Positions 4,928-23,664 of a DNA stretch of 37,563 nucleotides are shown here, piece by piece. Below the pieces are notes generated by a model that did not search any database, was not told the origin of the DNA, and saw only the letters and a list, made by a program, of their open reading frames with translations. Each line of letters opens with the position of its first letter. Position 1 is the stretch's first letter. The DNA lies in assembly GCA_015661395.1 (NCBI GenBank), contig JACWML010000017.1, positions 1-37,563 on the forward strand, read 5' to 3'. Source of the stretch: Methanomicrobia archaeon. GTDB taxonomy: Archaea > Halobacteriota > Bog-38 > Methanoflorentales > Methanoflorentaceae. Both the position numbers and the translations under genes were made by a program.

Positions 4928-5068
4928 AGGTCACACAAAGACCTCCATCGGTTGAAAATCTACGTCGGGCGACCCGCCGTGGTGGATGCTCGACGAGTCT
5001 TCGATCCTCAACAATTCCGCGACCGACTGACGTTTATCGCAGCCGGCCTAGGAGACTTCAGCGGCTAG
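4928..5068 (+). pseudogene. C-terminal fragment of UDP-glucose 6-dehydrogenase
   Basis: The reading frame gives RPAVVDARRVFDPQQFRDRL then TFIAAGLGDFSG and TAG (5066-5068). This matches the C-terminal end of the intact UDP-glucose dehydrogenase in this window (PAVVDARRIFDPHEFGNRL then TFLAVGVG). Only the last 40 or so residues survive; the NAD domain and active-site cysteine are gone. The nucleotide sequences clearly differ, so this is an old paralogue and not a fresh duplication. It lies directly before the SLOG gene. Confidence 0.8.
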
Positions 5069-5136
5069 CGACAGCGGTTTACTAAGCTTCTCTTACATAC
5101 AGGTGGTGACGAGCTCGGGGTTGTGCGGAAATCACG

Positions 5137-6660
5137 ATGGCTGCGACGGACCTCGACTCTAAGCTGCCCGACGTTTCCCGCAGCTGCGCCCGACCAAGGA
5201 GCAAACTTTTTTATACTCGCGCGAGCAGCTCTCAAATAGAATTGTTTTTCTTCTCCGTGGATCAATTGAGCGACCCGTTCGAAGGGCAGGGGCTTTCGAA
5301 CACACGGGACAAACTCGACGAGTTCGCTCGAACGAAGCTGAAGGAGGGCTGGCGCGAGGCGCACCAGGCTCCCTTCTCTCCCTGGACGTTCTACCGCATG
5401 GCCGTCAGCTACCTCTACCTCTCTAAGCCCTATCCCGCGTTGGCGGCGTGCGCGAAAGCGCTCCAGCTGAGCAACTCGGAGTCCGTCATCAACGCCGCGC
5501 ACGACGCGCTCAGCGTCCTCGACGCGTGTGAGGAGGAACTCGTCGGCTATGAGTGGTTGCGCCGGTTGCTCCTGATCGGCGCTGCGGGGAGGTTTCACGC
5601 GTCCCGCGCGCTGTCGGAGCTGCAGCTGCTCGCATTGCCGGAAGCGCCGATCGCCCCCCCGGTCACGATTCTCGCGGGCGGGTGCAGGGCCGACGACGAC
5701 GCGTGCTTCGTCGTTTTTCGCCCGCTCGTGATTGAAGCGTTTCGCACCTACACGGGCACGATCATCTCGGGGGGGACGCCCATCGGGGTCAGCAGTATGG
5801 CTGGGGACGTGCAAGAGGCGTTTCCCGAGTCTATCCACGCGATCGGCTACGTCCCGCGCGGCGTGACCAACACGCCCCTCGATCACCGCTATAACGAGAT
5901 TCGGCTAACGCCCAATTCCGACTTCAGCGCCATGGAAGTGATCCAGTACTGGTGCGACCTCGTCGCCTCCGGCGTTTCGCCCTCGCAGGTGACGGTATTG
6001 GGCATCGACGGCGGCCCAATATCCGCGAGCGAATACAAGGTGGCCTTGGCCCTCGGCGCGTCCGTCGCCTTGCTCGAAGGAAGCGGCCGCGAGGCGAAAA
6101 AGCTTCGGCACAACCGGCGCTGGCGGGCCTCTCGGGGGCTCGTGTGCATTCCCGTTGACAGCTACATCATCGAGGAGTTCGTCAAGCCCCATCCGCAGCA
6201 GCTCGATACGGCCGAGCGGGAGCGTTTGGCGCGGGTCATTCACGACGCGTACAGGGAACGCGAGCGGGGCGTCACGCCCGCGGATGATCCGTCGATGGCG
6301 CCGTGGGACGAGCTACCGAGTTATCTGAAGCACTCGAATCGCGCCCAGGCGGATCGTATCTTTGAGAAGGTGGAGCGCATCGGGTACACCGTCGAGAGGC
6401 GTACCGGCGGCAGCGCGGCGCCGATCACGGATTTCACGCGTGATGAGCTTACCGTGATGGCGCAGATGGAGCACGGTCGCTGGGTGGTCGAGCGCCTCAA
6501 CGGAGGGTGGATGCCTGGATCCGGACGGGACGTCCGGCACAAGATAAGCCCCTATTTTGTCCCGTGGCGCGCCTTGCCTGAGTACGTGAAGAACAAGGAG
6601 CGCAAAATGGTGCGCACCATACCCACGCTCCTCGACGCGATCGGGCTGCAGGTTGGCTAA
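5137..6660 (+). CDS. TRPM-type SLOG domain protein with C-terminal RyR domain
   Basis: A 507-residue frame. Residues about 80-165 form TPR-like helices (SPWTFYRMAVSYLYLSKPYP). Residues about 175-345 form a SLOG (LOG-Smf/DprA-TRPM) fold with TILAGGCRAD and the nucleotide-loop motif ISGGTPIGVSSMAGDV. Residues about 430-507 match the RyR repeat: MEHGRWVVERLNGGWMPG followed by KISPYFVPWRALPEYVKNKE. Known SLOG domains bind nucleotides; the TRPM2 one binds ADP-ribose. This is therefore probably a cytoplasmic nucleotide sensor. No membrane span is present. The start is uncertain: a TATA-like CTTTTTTATA near 5206-5216 lies inside the frame and a GTG at 5257 could be used instead. Next genes encode SLATT and TIR proteins on the same strand. 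Confidence 0.8.
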   Translation: MAATDLDSKLPDVSRSCARPRSKLFYTRASSSQIELFFFSVDQLSDPFEGQGLSNTRDKLDEFARTKLKEGWREAHQAPFSPWTFYRMAVSYLYLSKPYPALAACAKALQLSNSESVINAAHDALSVLDACEEELVGYEWLRRLLLIGAAGRFHASRALSELQLLALPEAPIAPPVTILAGGCRADDDACFVVFRPLVIEAFRTYTGTIISGGTPIGVSSMAGDVQEAFPESIHAIGYVPRGVTNTPLDHRYNEIRLTPNSDFSAMEVIQYWCDLVASGVSPSQVTVLGIDGGPISASEYKVALALGASVALLEGSGREAKKLRHNRRWRASRGLVCIPVDSYIIEEFVKPHPQQLDTAERERLARVIHDAYRERERGVTPADDPSMAPWDELPSYLKHSNRAQADRIFEKVERIGYTVERRTGGSAAPITDFTRDELTVMAQMEHGRWVVERLNGGWMPGSGRDVRHKISPYFVPWRALPEYVKNKERKMVRTIPTLLDAIGLQVG

Positions 6661-6867
6661 ACGGGCGACGAGTAGGCGCGAGCGCGTCACGTGCAGATCC
6701 GGCGTAAAGGGATCGTTTTTTGTACTTTGAGCGAGCGTACACACGTCAGTAAGCGATGAAGTGCCGAGCGCTCCGCGCGTGGTGCGGACCCGACGGGAAG
6801 CGAACGCGCACCGCGTCGGTCTTTGGGCACCTCGGTCAGCAGAGGTGCTGCGCGTCACCGCTGGGTT

Positions 6868-8046
6868 ATGATCGTCATGGTGCCGTCATACGCTGAGCAG
6901 AGCGCGCTCGTCAGCGACCGTCGCGAACAGGGCGCCGATCAGACGGACGACATGCACGACACCCCTGAAGAAATGGCGCAGTGGAAGCCGCTTGCGGCTG
7001 CCCTTCAGAGCTGTCAAGAAAAGGTCGAGCCGGCGTATCGGGCCGCGGACCGCACCGCGCTGCGATTTCAGAAGCAGCACCAGGCCATCACGATTGCGGC
7101 TGCCATCGCCGGCACCGTCGCCGTGCTGCTTGCGATCCTCCAGCTGCCCTCGATTATAGGCGGATTTCTCGTGCCGATTCCCTTCGTCGAAGGCATGGCG
7201 GCAGCCATCGCGTTTGTCGCCGTCCTGCTCGGCATCTTCACGCTCCGGCACGTGGGGTGGATGTTCCTGCGCCACAAGGCGGAACGGTTCAAGTTTCTCA
7301 AGTTTCGCTTCCTCATCGACCCGCACCTGTGGAGCGACGACGCCGCTCAGCGGGAACGCACGACGCAATGGCTGACGTATGCGACCAACAAGATCGCGGG
7401 GCTGACGAACGAGGAGTTGGAAACGTGGGCAGAGCACGGCATTCTCCCCGAAGAGCCGCCGAGCTTGGCGGGCAGCCGGGCCGACGCCTACACCCTCTAC
7501 AGCCTCGTCGACTACTACCTCACGAAGCGCTGCAGGAATCAGCTCCACTACTTTGAGCGCAAGGCGCAGCAGTTTTCGAGCACGGATCGCTATATCAAGG
7601 CGCTGCCCCGTCTGCTGTTCTTTGGGAGCGTCCTCGCCGCGCTCGCGCACTTCTCTCTCGACCTCTTCGACACGTACCTTCAGCCGCCCGAGGCTGCGGC
7701 GCAGGCAGCCGAAACAACGGCGCGCGTGCCCACTATTACCCTTGCAATCGCCCTTATCCTCGTCGCCGCGTCGCTCCCGGTCATCGGCGCGGGCGTCCGG
7801 ACGTTCCGCTCGGCCTATCAGCTCGCCCGCAATACGAGCCGCTACAAGGCGGCGTTCGAGGCGATTAAGCTTCCTGCGGAACGGCTGGAACACGATGCCG
7901 AGCGCCTATACGGGCTCTACGCCGAGGGGCGTACCACCATCGACGCCCACGACGTCTTCCGCGACCTGTGGCGCTGCGAGCAAATCCTTGAGGCCGAACA
8001 CCGTGAGTGGCTCCGCCTCATGATGGAGGCAGAGTGGTTCGGCTAG
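6868..8046 (+). CDS. Four-helix membrane protein with two SLATT-like 2TM modules
   Basis: About 392 residues from ATG 6868 (407 from the TTG at 6823; ATG 6952 is another option; none has a clear ribosome-binding site). It has two hairpins of paired membrane spans: ITIAAAIAGTVAVLLAIL with MAAAIAFVAVLLGIFTL, and LLFFGSVLAALAHFSLDLF with TITLAIALILVAASLPVIG. Between and after them are charged helical stretches such as RNTSRYKAAFEAIKLPAE. This is the pattern of SLATT (SMODS and SLOG-associating 2TM effector) domains, here apparently two in tandem. SLATT proteins are predicted pore-forming effectors triggered by nucleotide signals. It follows the SLOG-RyR gene by about 200 bp on the same strand. 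Family assignment is by topology and context, not by alignment. Confidence 0.72.
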   Translation: MIVMVPSYAEQSALVSDRREQGADQTDDMHDTPEEMAQWKPLAAALQSCQEKVEPAYRAADRTALRFQKQHQAITIAAAIAGTVAVLLAILQLPSIIGGFLVPIPFVEGMAAAIAFVAVLLGIFTLRHVGWMFLRHKAERFKFLKFRFLIDPHLWSDDAAQRERTTQWLTYATNKIAGLTNEELETWAEHGILPEEPPSLAGSRADAYTLYSLVDYYLTKRCRNQLHYFERKAQQFSSTDRYIKALPRLLFFGSVLAALAHFSLDLFDTYLQPPEAAAQAAETTARVPTITLAIALILVAASLPVIGAGVRTFRSAYQLARNTSRYKAAFEAIKLPAERLEHDAERLYGLYAEGRTTIDAHDVFRDLWRCEQILEAEHREWLRLMMEAEWFG

Positions 8047-8175
8047 GCCGACAGCATACGACGCGCACAGGCGAGACTTGCCCGTGCGACGCGCGCAAAC
8101 TCGAAAAGCTTATGAAGGGGAGCGTTCAAACTGAATTAAAATAATTGGTTGTTAATATTTACCACGGTGAGGCAC

Positions 8176-9210
8176 ATGAGCGACAATATCTTCATCAGCT
8201 ATTCGTCAAAGAACAAGGCCATAGCTGACGCCGTCTGTCATAAACTCGAAGAGCGCAAGATGAAGTGCTGGATAGCGCCACGCGACATCCTGCCGGGGGC
8301 GAACTACGCCGAAGAGCTCATTAACGCGATTGACAACAGCAAACTCTTCGTGCTCATTTTTTCCAAGGATTCCAATCAATCGCAACACGTGCTCCGCGAG
8401 TGCGAGCGAGCCGTCTCTCACGGGATCCCGATCGTCCCATTCCGGATCTCGGACGTGCTCCCGGGCGCGGCGCTGCAGTACTTCATAGGTCCGCAGCACT
8501 GGCTCGATGCGATCACCGAGCCGTGTGCGGCCCACATAAACCGACTCGCCGACACGGTGCAGATCCTCCTGACGCAGGAGGACCTCACGCAAAAGAGCGC
8601 CGGTGAAGCGCTTATCGAAGCCGAAGCGCTTGCAGTGCAGCGACAACAGCAGGTCCTCAGAATGCGGAGGACTTCGATCGTCCTCGCAGCGGTGGTGGTG
8701 GTTCTCGCCGCGGTGGGCGGCGGGTGGTTCTATACGCAGCAGATGAATCAGGCGAGCTTGAACCTAGTGCCCTTCACGGACAAGGCGGCAGGGTTTCAGA
8801 TTCAGGTTCCTCAAGGCTGGACCAAGACTCAACCGAGCCCCCCCGGTGATCCTCCGGTCGCCTTGATCGTCTACCTGCCGACGGGTAATCAGTCAGAAAA
8901 CCTGTTCGTCAATAACGTATCCGCAAAGGGGGCCGACTTTGATAACGTTACCAATGCAAACCTTAACACCGCGCAGAACCTGCTTAGCAGCAACCAGATC
9001 ACCATACAGGAGTCAGGCCTGACAAGCTTGGCGGGACAAAACGCGTACAAGCTCGTGTATACGATCAACAGCTCAGGTCTCCAGTGCATGCAAATCTGGA
9101 CGGTTAACAACAATACGGTGTACCAGCTCACGTACAACGCACAGCCCCAGCACTACACCCAGTACTTGTCAACGGTCCAAAACATGGTCAACTCGTTCCA
9201 GTTCGTCTGA
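8176..9210 (+). CDS. Membrane-anchored TIR domain protein with outer PsbP-like domain
   Basis: A 344-residue protein starting at ATG 8176, where GGTGAGG (8166-8172) gives a good ribosome-binding site; the ORF-track start at 8149 (TTG) is rejected. Residues 1-135 are a TIR_2-type domain: DNIFISYSSKNKAIADAV, CWIAPRDILPGANYAEEL, and RECERAV with Glu75 at the place of the catalytic glutamate of NAD-cleaving TIRs. A basic linker (LRMRR) precedes one membrane span (about 167-186, SIVLAAVVVVLAAVGGGWFY). The remaining 155 residues lie outside and resemble PsbP/LpqN-type domains (KAAGFQIQVPQGWTKTQPS). It may act as NADase or signal generator anchored to the membrane. AT-rich sequence at 8134-8160 probably holds its promoter. 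Confidence 0.85.
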   Translation: MSDNIFISYSSKNKAIADAVCHKLEERKMKCWIAPRDILPGANYAEELINAIDNSKLFVLIFSKDSNQSQHVLRECERAVSHGIPIVPFRISDVLPGAALQYFIGPQHWLDAITEPCAAHINRLADTVQILLTQEDLTQKSAGEALIEAEALAVQRQQQVLRMRRTSIVLAAVVVVLAAVGGGWFYTQQMNQASLNLVPFTDKAAGFQIQVPQGWTKTQPSPPGDPPVALIVYLPTGNQSENLFVNNVSAKGADFDNVTNANLNTAQNLLSSNQITIQESGLTSLAGQNAYKLVYTINSSGLQCMQIWTVNNNTVYQLTYNAQPQHYTQYLSTVQNMVNSFQFV

Positions 9211-9489: not shown

Positions 9490-10899
9490 ATGGCGGAGTT
9501 GTTTCACAAGGCGATTCAGATGAATAACGACAGCAACGTAGAAAGCCTCATTGCGGACTTAGGAAGTTCGGAATGGAATACGAGGAGCGAGGCCGTACGC
9601 GCGCTCCGCAAGCTCGGCGACAAGCGCGCCGTCGAGCCTGTCATCAGCATGTTGAACGACGAAAATAAGGTGGTGCGCAAATACGCGGCATACACGCTCG
9701 ACAAACTCGGCGACACGCGTGCCGTTGAGCCGCTTATCACCGCGCTGAGCGACGAGAGCACGAGCGTGCGAAGCATGGCCGCCCAGTCGCTCGGCCACCT
9801 GGGCGATACACGCGCCGTGGAGTCGCTTCTCAACGTCTTGCAGCACGACGAGGAATGGCTCGTGCGCGACGCAGCGGCGCACGCGCTCAGCCACCTCGGT
9901 GACAAGCGTGCCGTCGAGCCCCTCATCGCCGCCATCGGCGACGAGCACTGGTTCGTTCGTGAGGCGGCCGTGCGCGCCGTAAGCAAATTGGACGACCAGC
10001 GCGCCCTTGAACCGCTGATTTCCGAAGCCTTTGACGACGAGCACTGGTTCGTTCGTGAGGCGGCAGTGCAATCGCTCGCTTTACTGCACGACCCGCGCGC
10101 GGTTGAAGCGCTCATCACGATCGTTACGAGTCCAAAAAGTGAGGAGGGGCGGGGCAGCCCCGGCGACATATACGTTCGAAAGGCGGCGACGCAGGGCCTG
10201 GGTCAGCTCCATGACAAGCGCGCGATTGAGCCGCTCATCGTCGCGCTCACCGACGAGTACCGCGTGGTTCGCGAGGAGGCGGCCCGTGGCCTCGGTCAGC
10301 TCCGTGATAAGCGCCCCGTTACTCGCCTCACCCGCGCGTTGGATGACGAAGATTGGATCGTGCGCGAGGCTGCCGCCCGCAGTCTCGGCCAAATTGGTGA
10401 CGACCGCGCCGAAGACGCCCTCTATGACACCGTTATGGGTAACCGGCCGTGGATCCGCGACTTAGATGATGAAGACAAGTACGTGCGCAAGGCGGCGACG
10501 CACGCGCTCTGGAAGCTCGGCGACATGCGCGCCCTCGACGGGCTGATCGATAACTTAAAGAACGAGGATCGCTTTGTTCGCAAAGCCGCAGCCGAAACGC
10601 TTGGCCAGCTCGGCGATGAGCGTGCCGTAGATGCACTCATTGATGCTCTCGCCAATTCGGAAAGCGCTGACCGGGCGCACGCCGCAGACGCATTGGGAAA
10701 GATCGGCGATACGCTGGCCGTTGAGTCTCTGATCCGCGCCTTGGGCGACAATAATGCAGTCGTACGCAAGTACGCCGCGTACGCCCTTGGTCAACTCAAC
10801 GATCCGCGGGCGACCCCTCCACTCACCCGGGCTTCAAAGGATGCAGACATGGACGTACGAGATTCCGCTGCTCACGCATTGTGGCGGCTTCAATGTTGA
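9490..10899 (+). CDS. HEAT-repeat (PBS-lyase type) protein, about 14 repeats
   Basis: A 469-residue protein made almost wholly of about 31-residue HEAT/PBS-lyase repeats with the consensus VRxxAAxALGxLGDxRAVEPLI. I count 14 copies, from EWNTRSEAVRALRKLGDKRA to DVRDSAAHALWRLQC. Two copies are slightly longer: one has a Gly/Ser-rich insert (SPKSEEGRGSPGD) and one carries VMGNRPWIRDL. There is no signal peptide, membrane span or enzymatic domain. Such proteins form superhelical scaffolds that hold partner proteins or, in phycobiliprotein lyases, cofactors. Here it may be a scaffold for the preceding TIR/SLATT/SLOG group, but that rests on position alone; a 279-bp gap separates it from the TIR gene. 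Confidence 0.9.
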   Translation: MAELFHKAIQMNNDSNVESLIADLGSSEWNTRSEAVRALRKLGDKRAVEPVISMLNDENKVVRKYAAYTLDKLGDTRAVEPLITALSDESTSVRSMAAQSLGHLGDTRAVESLLNVLQHDEEWLVRDAAAHALSHLGDKRAVEPLIAAIGDEHWFVREAAVRAVSKLDDQRALEPLISEAFDDEHWFVREAAVQSLALLHDPRAVEALITIVTSPKSEEGRGSPGDIYVRKAATQGLGQLHDKRAIEPLIVALTDEYRVVREEAARGLGQLRDKRPVTRLTRALDDEDWIVREAAARSLGQIGDDRAEDALYDTVMGNRPWIRDLDDEDKYVRKAATHALWKLGDMRALDGLIDNLKNEDRFVRKAAAETLGQLGDERAVDALIDALANSESADRAHAADALGKIGDTLAVESLIRALGDNNAVVRKYAAYALGQLNDPRATPPLTRASKDADMDVRDSAAHALWRLQC

Positions 10900-22421: not shown

Positions 22422-22610
22422 TCACCAGCACCAATGCGCTTTCTGCAAATAGCTTTTACGGTAATCGTGCGACGCGACTGCGTCTTTCTGCACCTGATCC
22501 GGGGAGGCTTGCAAAAGCAATCGGTTACAGATGTTTGGCGTCAGTGCCATGGCCTTGAGTGGCACCTCCCGTGAAGGCACTGCGAAGCTGTTTTCAGGTT
22601 TAGGCTGAGC
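22422..22610 (-). pseudogene. Possible C-terminal remnant of an unrecognised gene
   Basis: The reverse frame reads SFAVPSREVPLKAMALTPNI, then LLLQASPDQVQKDAVASHDY and ends KSYLQKAHWCW and TGA. It looks like a conserved protein end, but the upstream part of the ORF (to 22727) does not, and I cannot name the family. It could be chance. Confidence 0.3.
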
Positions 22611-22691
22611 ATTCCGGTCGCATCGTTTGCCATCTCCCCAACAGCGCAGCCTCCGCACCCGAAAGCATTTACGAACGTTGACCGTCAAATT

Positions 22692-22701
22692 AAAGTATAG
22701 A
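22692..22701 (+). promoter_or_regulatory. Possible TATA element before the candidate RNA
   Basis: AAAGTATAGA at this position lies about 30 bp before the start of the folded region described next, in a local AT-rich stretch with no open reading frame behind it. Confidence 0.3.
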
Positions 22702-22730
22702 CACCAAGAAAATAAAACACGGATCATAGA

Positions 22731-22831
22731 CAGGGGTTGCAGACCTGTGCTCTGTTGTCACCTTTGCTGCAACAGTGCGCAGATCTGCAGCACAGTCCCC
22801 GAGCCTAAGCCGGCTCGGGCTTCTCTTTTTT
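22731..22831 (+). ncRNA. Candidate structured non-coding RNA
   Basis: No protein is encoded here, but the strand can fold: outer stem CTGTGCT (22745-22751) with AGCACAG (22789-22795), inner stem CTGTTG (22752-22757) with CAACAG (22770-22775), and a small GCA-GATC-TGC hairpin in the remaining arm, i.e. a three-way junction. A GC-rich terminator hairpin with T-tract follows. It matches no RNA family I know. Confidence 0.35.
22798..22831 (+). terminator. Hairpin plus T-tract
   Basis: CCCGAGCC-TAAGCC-GGCTCGGG is a perfect 8-bp GC-rich stem followed by CTTCTCTTTTTT. It resembles an intrinsic terminator; in archaea the T-tract alone would be enough to stop transcription. Confidence 0.55.
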
Positions 22832-23375
22832 GGGTCTAAGAGCGTACAGAACATCGCGCAATACCCACTGTTAAACATTTCTATTTAGTTCGATTGTCGA
22901 AGCCTCTTTTAAGAACGCTTACAGTTGCCAAGATGACAGACGAGGCGATTATCGTAGTACAACCGAGAATCAGGAATGGGCCCACCTCAAAAAGCGCGCT
23001 GTCTGTCCGTGCAGCGTGAGGCATTTAAGCGAGCAGCTGCGATGATCGATCAGCGAGATGTGCGACATCGTAAGCTCTCTAGGCTTTAAATTGCAGCACG
23101 GGTCCTCAGCGCCACGCCTGAGTTTGGCTCCGCAGTTTTGATCGTGGAAGGAGGGGTGCTGTAGATGTCACAGCTTGCAAACAGTGTCATCCCTTTGCTA
23201 CTTGGGACACAACCCACAGAGTTGGCCGTGCGCGACGACGATCGGAACAATAGCTAAGCGCACCTGGTAAGCCCAGTTTTGAGATTATTTTTCGCCGGCA
23301 CTATGCTCCCTGGTCTCAAAAAAAACGCAGGAATACTTATCGACTTGAAACACCACTAAAGATTTGGGAAAAAAC
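22832..23375. other. Gene-poor stretch with two short coding-like pieces
   Basis: A fragment ending at 23164 reads LSATPEFGSAVLIVEGGVL and TAG, like the end of a lost gene. The TAG touches an ATG at 23165 that has a strong GGAGGGGTG site 6 bases before it and opens a 30-codon ORF (MSQLANSVIPLLLGTQPTEL...). Both are too short to call as genes. Nothing else is recognised up to the zinc-ribbon promoter. Confidence 0.35.
23332..23342 (+). promoter_or_regulatory. Probable TATA box of the zinc-ribbon gene
   Basis: AATACTTATCG ends 33 bp before the ATG at 23376, normal archaeal spacing. The match to the TATA consensus is moderate. Confidence 0.4.
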
Positions 23376-23528
23376 ATGTGCTCTGGCGGTGGCCCAGTCA
23401 TTACTATGGAAACGAACTGGTTTGTGAAGTATCACTGCAACAACTGCGGAAAGATGTTCAAAGCGATGGGCAAAACCCCGACGTGTCCGTCCTGTAACTC
23501 GGAAGACGTTGTGAACCATTCAGATTAA
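23376..23528 (+). CDS. Small zinc-ribbon protein (50 residues)
   Basis: Too short for the ORF track. MCSGGGPVITMETNWFVKYH leads into two CxxC knuckles, HCNNCGKMF and TCPSCNS, spaced like a rubredoxin-type zinc ribbon, and ends NHSD. Similar mini-proteins are widespread in euryarchaea and resemble RNA polymerase subunit P or ribosomal zinc ribbons; the role is unknown. It could start at the second methionine (23406). Confidence 0.75.
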   Translation: MCSGGGPVITMETNWFVKYHCNNCGKMFKAMGKTPTCPSCNSEDVVNHSD

Positions 23529-23654
23529 ACGTTGAGACGCAGAAGATTGCAGACTTGCTTAAGCAGCTGCTTCGTTGATAGCTCTGAACGGAAAAAAGCA
23601 CATGCTCTCACCGTGTTTGCGCAGCTGTTGTTGACCCCAGAAATCCACGAATGT

Positions 23655-23664
23655 GTATTTAAGA
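23655..23664 (+). promoter_or_regulatory. Probable TATA box of the galU operon
   Basis: GTATTTAAGA lies 61 bp before the ATG of galU, which would give a leader of about 35 bases for the three-gene operon galU-UXS-glycosyltransferase. Confidence 0.4.

What the first reader, a model, noticed from the sequence alone, without database searches (positions are those of the whole stretch)
8176..9210. TIR enzyme inside, PsbP-like domain outside
The TIR domain is joined through one membrane span to a 155-residue outer domain resembling PsbP/LpqN-like folds. This looks like a receptor in which an outside event could switch the inner NADase, unlike the soluble TIR proteins of known defence systems.
Basis: partly seen in the sequence, partly recalled or inferred. 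Interest (0 to 1): 0.5.

Follow-up and report, generated by a model that had tools for sequence, protein, structure and literature searches.

The report
TIR receptor beside RyR signal-sensor genes
A methane-producing archaeon carries a one-pass membrane protein with an immune-type NAD-cutting TIR domain inside the cell and a PsbP-like domain outside, and this kind of TIR gene sits next to ryanodine-receptor-type (RyR) domain genes far more often than chance, which points to a membrane receptor that signals through a small molecule made from NAD.

Summary
The 344-aa protein at 8176-9210 (+) has a TIR domain (residues 5-113, glutamate E75 kept), one hydrophobic span (167-185) and a PsbP-family domain (197-343), all well supported. 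Most homologues of the outer domain in the same genus are lipoproteins with a signal peptide and lipobox, so an outside location is well founded. The architecture is not rare: 62 of 102 homologous TIR proteins are TIR / one span / outer tail, with swapped outer parts. The PsbP fusion itself was seen only here (394 genomes of the phylum searched).

The neighbourhood is the larger finding. Just upstream on the same strand lie an LSDAT-RyR gene and a SLATT-like membrane protein gene. RyR and TIR genes lie within 5 kb in 10 of 16 archaeal genomes that hold both (expected 0.16). RyR genes also flank 20 of 80 named TIR loci in bacteria and archaea, often with gaps under 100 bases. A 2026 preprint shows phage RyR-domain proteins bind or cleave TIR-made cyclic ADP-ribose.

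Best reading: an envelope sensor whose TIR makes an NAD-derived signal, read or destroyed by the RyR protein, with SLATT as membrane effector. The signalling steps are inferred. The TIR gene probably has its own promoter.

The parts
8176..9210 (+). TIR-TM-PsbP gene, 344 aa (whole)
8166..8172 (+). Shine-Dalgarno-like GGTGAGG supporting the ATG at 8176
   Evidence: sequence
8188..8514 (+). TIR_2 domain, residues 5-113 (BB-loop motif CWIAPRDILPG)
   Evidence: pLDDT mostly about 97
8398..8400 (+). Codon of E75, position of the catalytic Glu of NADase TIRs; E in 89 of 90 homologues
8524..8673 (+). Helical linker, residues 117-166, running into the span
8674..8730 (+). Transmembrane span, residues 167-185
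8764..9204 (+). PsbP-family domain, residues 197-343, predicted extracytoplasmic
5137..6660 (+). TPR-LSDAT(SLOG of TRPM type)-RyR protein, 507 aa; LSDAT about 5707-6117, RyR 6454-6654; true start may be later than 5137
6823..8046 (+). SLATT-like membrane protein with two 2TM modules, ORF 407 aa (likely ATG start 6868)
9490..10899 (+). HEAT-repeat protein, 469 aa, downstream neighbour; no evidence that it belongs to the system

Best explanation
The gene encodes a one-pass membrane receptor-enzyme. The N-terminal TIR lies in the cytoplasm and the C-terminal PsbP-like domain lies outside. An event at the envelope is felt by the PsbP-like domain and passed through the span and helical linker, so that TIR domains assemble and cleave NAD into an ADP-ribose-type signal. 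The neighbouring LSDAT-RyR protein binds, or possibly degrades, that signal, and the SLATT-like protein acts on the membrane as effector. Shown: domains, the kept glutamate, predicted topology, the homology of the outer domain to lipoproteins, and the gene linkage. Inferred: NAD cleavage, sensing, the identity of the signal, the coupling to RyR and SLATT, and a defence or stress role.
For: Anatomy. E75 is kept in 89 of 90 homologues. PMC7075850 ties this position to NADase activity. Outer location: nearly all PsbP homologues inspected in the phylum lie behind a signal peptide, lipobox or span. Architecture: 62 of 102 homologous TIR proteins are TIR / one span / tail of at least 60 aa; the positive-inside rule agrees in 51 of these 62; 9 more are outer part / span / TIR. 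RyR linkage: in 16 genomes with both domains, 10 have them within 5 kb (expected 0.16; at most 3 in 20,000 simulations) and 8 within 2 kb. RyR genes lie in the held flanks (6 kb or less) of 20 of 80 named TIR loci, 16 on the same strand, many with gaps of 25-80 bases. RyR partners are channel-like 2TM-TrkA_N-RyR, AAA/STAND-RyR, RyR-TPR-S-cyclase and PAS-HisKA-RyR. Gene order RyR, SLATT, TIR recurs in another family (G252), with SLATT homologues at 34-39% identity only in genomes where RyR and TIR are also near. PMC13232231: PF02026 proteins of phages bind or cleave 2'cADPR and 3'cADPR made by TIRs; the binding His and Trp are kept in the window RyR (EHGRW). PMC9503650: SLATT is predicted to be an ADPr-regulated membrane effector and is paired with TIR in phages.
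Against: The TIR gene is 130 bp from the SLATT gene, with AT-rich promoter-like DNA between, and its composition differs: GC 0.58/0.53 for its two halves against 0.635/0.639 for the RyR and SLATT genes. It may therefore be its own transcription unit. SLATT assignment is just under curated cut-offs (40.7 against 41 bits). The window RyR has Glu where its homologues have Asp in the KDR motif, and LSDAT-RyR could be a neighbour by chance in a defence-rich region. The PsbP fusion has no orthologue, so its role cannot be tested by conservation. One genus member carries a PsbP-like domain with no signal peptide or span before it. No biochemical data exist.
Confidence: 0.5

Rival explanations
1. The PsbP-like domain is only an envelope anchor. 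The TIR is controlled from inside the cell by partners, and the protein is not a receptor for outside events.
For: The outer parts of related TIRs are very different (TPR, propeller-like, PKD, LamG-like, short unknown domains), and some relatives are soluble. The PsbP part was taken from an existing lipoprotein module.
Against: The recurring, large and varied outer parts (median tail 308 aa) are more than an anchor needs.
Confidence: 0.25
2. The TIR protein works alone as an NAD-depleting enzyme, and the RyR and SLATT genes next to it form a separate unit.
For: Different base composition and a likely own promoter; soluble NAD-depleting TIRs are well known.
Against: Strong RyR-TIR linkage across archaea and bacteria and the same RyR, SLATT, TIR order in G252.
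Confidence: 0.17
3. The TIR domain is a non-enzymatic scaffold.
For: NAD cleavage has not been shown for this sub-family here; many TIRs are adaptors (established knowledge).
Against: Glu at position 75 in 89 of 90 homologues; this Glu is frequent in TIR groups with reported NADase activity (PMC7075850).
Confidence: 0.06
4. The span and PsbP part are a signal-peptide-like artefact, or the PsbP domain is cytoplasmic.
For: The span aligns with the signal peptides of lipoprotein homologues; one homologue in G003 has no signal peptide or span before its PsbP-like domain.
Against: The lipobox Cys is replaced by Gly, the span is internal (167-185) behind a folded TIR, and positive charges lie on the TIR side.
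Confidence: 0.02

Closest known systems
Prokaryotic TIR_2 (PF13676) proteins with one span and variable outer domains
   Same: TIR mostly 38-58% identical, BB loop CWIAPRD, Glu 75, single span, outer domain; found in Methanoregula, Methanocella, Chloroflexi, Bacteroidales, Verrucomicrobia and others
   Different: None of those found carries a PsbP-like outer domain
PsbP-like lipoproteins of the same archaeal genus
   Same: Outer domain 23-41% identical, same PsbP profile
   Different: They have a cleavable lipobox signal peptide and no TIR
Thoeris (ThsB TIR plus ThsA effector)
   Same: TIR enzyme expected to make an NAD-derived signal for a partner
   Different: No ThsA; Thoeris models match below cut-off; membrane-anchored instead of soluble
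Phage RyDEP and other RyR-domain (PF02026) proteins (PMC13232231)
   Same: Same RyR domain family with the ligand-binding His/Trp kept in the gene next door
   Different: Here the RyR genes are host genes beside TIR genes, fused to LSDAT, channel-like, kinase-like or NTPase parts
Animal Toll-like receptors
   Same: TIR inside, one span, sensing part outside
   Different: Opposite order (TIR N-terminal here), no leucine-rich repeats, and a TIR likely to be an enzyme instead of an adaptor
SLOG/SLATT nucleotide-signal conflict systems
   Same: LSDAT(SLOG)-RyR and SLATT genes side by side
   Different: A membrane TIR receptor is attached; I recall Burroughs and Aravind 2015/2020 as the source of the SLOG/SLATT idea, but those papers were not readable here

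Membership tests
TIR domain family (PF13676) | Profile match above curated cut-off and TIR fold | tested here: met
   76.2 bits against 28; pLDDT about 97, Foldseek hits to TIR domains
TIR NADase | Catalytic glutamate at position 75 | tested here: met
   E75 kept, 89 of 90 homologues
TIR NADase | NAD cleavage or cyclisation | not testable with these tools
   needs biochemistry
PsbP family (PF01789) | Profile match above curated cut-off | tested here: met
   42.4 bits against 23.5; solved PsbP 2xb3 hit by profile A1
PsbP family (PF01789) | Confident predicted 3D fold of the outer domain | tested here: inconclusive
   pLDDT mostly 33-75, no homologues of this part in the alignment
Photosystem PsbP protein | Equivalog score (NF040946) | tested here: not met
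   20.9 bits against 60
Thoeris | ThsB-type TIR model above cut-off | tested here: not met
   PADLOC ThsB E 8e-4 or weaker; NCBIfam ThcB4 23.5 against 220 bits
Thoeris | Adjacent ThsA (SIR2-SLOG or TM/Macro effector) | tested here: not met
   neighbours are LSDAT-RyR, SLATT and HEAT
SLATT effector | SLATT model above curated cut-off | tested here: inconclusive
   NF033634 40.7 against 41 bits
RyR domain (PF02026) | Profile above cut-off and ligand His/Trp | tested here: met
   47.8 bits against 27.4; EHGRW motif
Toll-like receptor | Leucine-rich-repeat ectodomain, ectodomain N-terminal | tested here: not met
   ectodomain is PsbP and C-terminal

The most novel reading that the evidence does not exclude
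Membrane TIR receptors in archaea and bacteria form a signalling class of their own. An outer sensor switches an inner TIR that makes a cyclic ADP-ribose isomer, and a partner RyR-domain protein (channel-like 2TM-TrkA_N-RyR, LSDAT-RyR with SLATT, or NTPase-RyR) is the receptor for it. This would be a prokaryotic forerunner of the cADPR/ryanodine-receptor link of animals.
Probability: 0.33. Interest if true: 0.85.

Novelty: new variant of a known kind. Interest (0 to 1): 0.6.

Why it matters
Known defence TIRs mostly sense events inside the cell. A TIR class with outer sensors beside RyR-domain genes would show how prokaryotes turn envelope events into NAD-derived signals. Since phage RyR-domain proteins were just shown to bind or cleave TIR-made cyclic ADP-ribose (PMC13232231), host RyR genes linked to TIR genes make a direct test possible: is RyR the natural receiver of a TIR signal, and does it open ion channels? 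That bears on the old and disputed question of cADPR acting on ryanodine receptors.

Tried and rejected
Thoeris membership: rejected, models below cut-off and no ThsA. Virus, phage or plasmid origin: no outer-domain relatives in viral contigs, only weak TIR hits there, one phage hit (TIR only), none in plasmids. Other TIR-PsbP fusions: none among PsbP hits of 394 genomes or in 80 named TIR loci. 8xMP as general partner: found beside TIR only in two sister genomes. Single-sequence AlphaFold run: pLDDT 40.7, not used. First genome-contig scan with the lone protein found nothing. No RNA family or tRNA in the window.

Full report
What is there. The ORF at 8176-9210 (+) encodes 344 aa. Pfam finds TIR_2 at residues 5-113 (76.2 bits) and PsbP at 197-343 (42.4 bits, cut-off 23.5, almost full profile length). 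One hydrophobic span, 167-185, has positive residues on the TIR side. The start ATG has a GGTGAGG ribosome-binding sequence. The genome is an 88% complete MAG of 2.16 Mb in 102 contigs; the window is one whole contig. Only seven genomes of its class are held, all one genus. Five of the seven, this one included, have the methanogenesis gene mcrA. Named matches place the phylum in Halobacteriota (Methanoregula and Methanocella contigs are among the same hits). Genes in the right part of the window are syntenic with a contig of sister genome G005 (76-91% DNA identity), so that part of the contig belongs to this lineage.

The outer domain. Homologues within the genus are mostly short proteins with a signal peptide and a lipobox Cys followed by the same domain, 23-41% identical. 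In 394 genomes of the phylum, 46 have this domain; almost all inspected cases lie behind a signal peptide, lipobox or span. A profile from these finds solved PsbP structures (2xb3, E 1.6e-5). The alignment runs through the signal peptide: the homologues' lipobox ...AAGC matches ...VGGG (ending at residue 183) of the window protein. The simplest reading is that a lipoprotein gene was joined behind a TIR and its signal became a permanent span; this step is inferred. One member of the genus (G003:C11) has a PsbP-like domain with no signal peptide or span before it, so the domain is not outside in every case.

The TIR. It belongs to a very common sub-family with the motif CWIAPRD. Relatives, mostly 38-58% identical, occur in many bacterial and archaeal phyla. 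Glu 75, the position tied to NADase activity in PMC7075850, is kept in 89 of 90 sequences. Modelled with 41 sequences, the TIR has pLDDT about 97 and matches TIR domains of SPARTA, SARM1, AbTir and plant receptors; the linker is one helix, 117-181. Of 102 homologues, 62 are TIR / one span / outer tail of at least 60 aa (median 308 aa), 9 are outer part / span / TIR, and 16 have no span. Outer parts include TPR, zinc-ribbon-linked beta domains, propeller-like repeats, PKD-like and LamG-like domains (some by eye). So the architecture is a common one with swappable outer parts, and the PsbP version appears to be private to this genome so far.

The neighbourhood. Upstream on the same strand are a TPR-LSDAT-RyR gene (5137-6660) and a SLATT-like gene with two 2TM modules (ORF 6823-8046). 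RyR is rare: 20 of 394 genomes of the phylum and none of 14 well-known control genomes. Of the RyR-positive genomes 16 also have TIR_2, and in 10 of these the two lie within 5 kb (8 within 2 kb); uniform random placement gives 0.16, at most 3 in 20,000 runs. In family f11 (Methanoregulaceae by a contig-length match) the pair is often directly adjacent on one strand, overlapping in G182. Among the 80 named TIR loci, 20 have a RyR gene in the held flanks, 16 on the same strand, with gaps often of 25-80 bases; the density seen in archaea would predict 0.03 (the bacterial background was not measured). Partner RyR proteins are 2TM-TrkA_N-RyR (channel-like), PAS-HisKA-RyR, AAA/STAND-RyR, and RyR-TPR-S-nucleotide-cyclase. 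SLATT homologues of the window gene occur in 3 of 24 genomes tested, each time near RyR and TIR, and G252 keeps the order RyR, SLATT, TIR. In sister genomes G003 and G006 the TIR gene is beside a gene for an 8xMP membrane protein instead.

How it probably works. The preprint PMC13232231 shows that PF02026 RyR-domain proteins of phages bind or cleave 2'cADPR and 3'cADPR, products of TIR enzymes, using a His, a Trp, a second His and an Asp. The window RyR keeps the His/Trp motif (EHGRW) and a later His, with Glu in place of the KDR Asp of most homologues (assignment of the last two positions is by my own alignment, without the RyDEP sequence). PMC9503650 treats SLATT as an ADPr-regulated membrane effector and reports TIR-SLATT pairs in phages. 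I therefore favour a chain: outer sensor, TIR, NAD-derived signal, RyR/LSDAT, SLATT. Each arrow is inferred. Rivals are an anchor role of the PsbP part, a TIR acting alone, and a non-enzymatic TIR.

Limits. Composition differs between the TIR gene (GC 0.58/0.53) and the RyR and SLATT genes (0.635/0.639), and the 130-base gap looks like a promoter. SLATT models fall just below their cut-offs. The linkage test assumes uniform placement and does not correct for kinship, though the pairs span several families of archaea and many bacterial phyla. Earlier surveys of SLOG, SLATT and TPR-S systems by Burroughs and Aravind (recalled, not readable here) may already mention RyR-TIR neighbours, which limits the novelty claim.

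Noticed in passing
L196:5812-8397 (own genome contig C46): A second LSDAT-RyR protein in the same genome, 861 aa, with an N-terminal RelA/SpoT synthetase-type domain and TPRs.
   Followed up: partly
window 4969-5306: Two stretches (4969-5129, 5163-5306) recur near the edge of contig C7 at 79% and 94% identity; the second covers the annotated start of the LSDAT-RyR ORF, so the true start may be later.
   Followed up: partly
window 22453-23663: A mostly non-coding stretch of about 1.2 kb that matches two separate copies in sister genome G005 contig C3 (76-80% identity); no Rfam match.
   Followed up: no
L076:8463-8951 and L077:527-1030: In sister genomes G003 and G006 the TIR-span-outer gene is next to a gene of the 8xMP octameric membrane protein family PF24838.
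   Followed up: partly
L069 (G003:C11): A 423-aa protein with a PsbP-like domain at its C-terminus and no signal peptide or span before it.
   Followed up: no
L199:4483-4776 (G005 contig C3): A RyR fragment, 49% identical to the window RyR, lies inside the contig syntenic with the right part of this window.
   Followed up: no
L001 (own genome contig C27): A second TIR protein in the same genome, apparently soluble with a C-terminal TIR.
   Followed up: no
window 9490-10899: HEAT-repeat protein with about a dozen repeats directly downstream of the TIR gene.
   Followed up: no
L111:3597-5939 and L112:3100-5976: RyR-TPR-S-nucleotide-cyclase proteins encoded 25-50 bases before membrane TIR genes in Syntrophobacterales and Chloroflexi.
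   Followed up: partly
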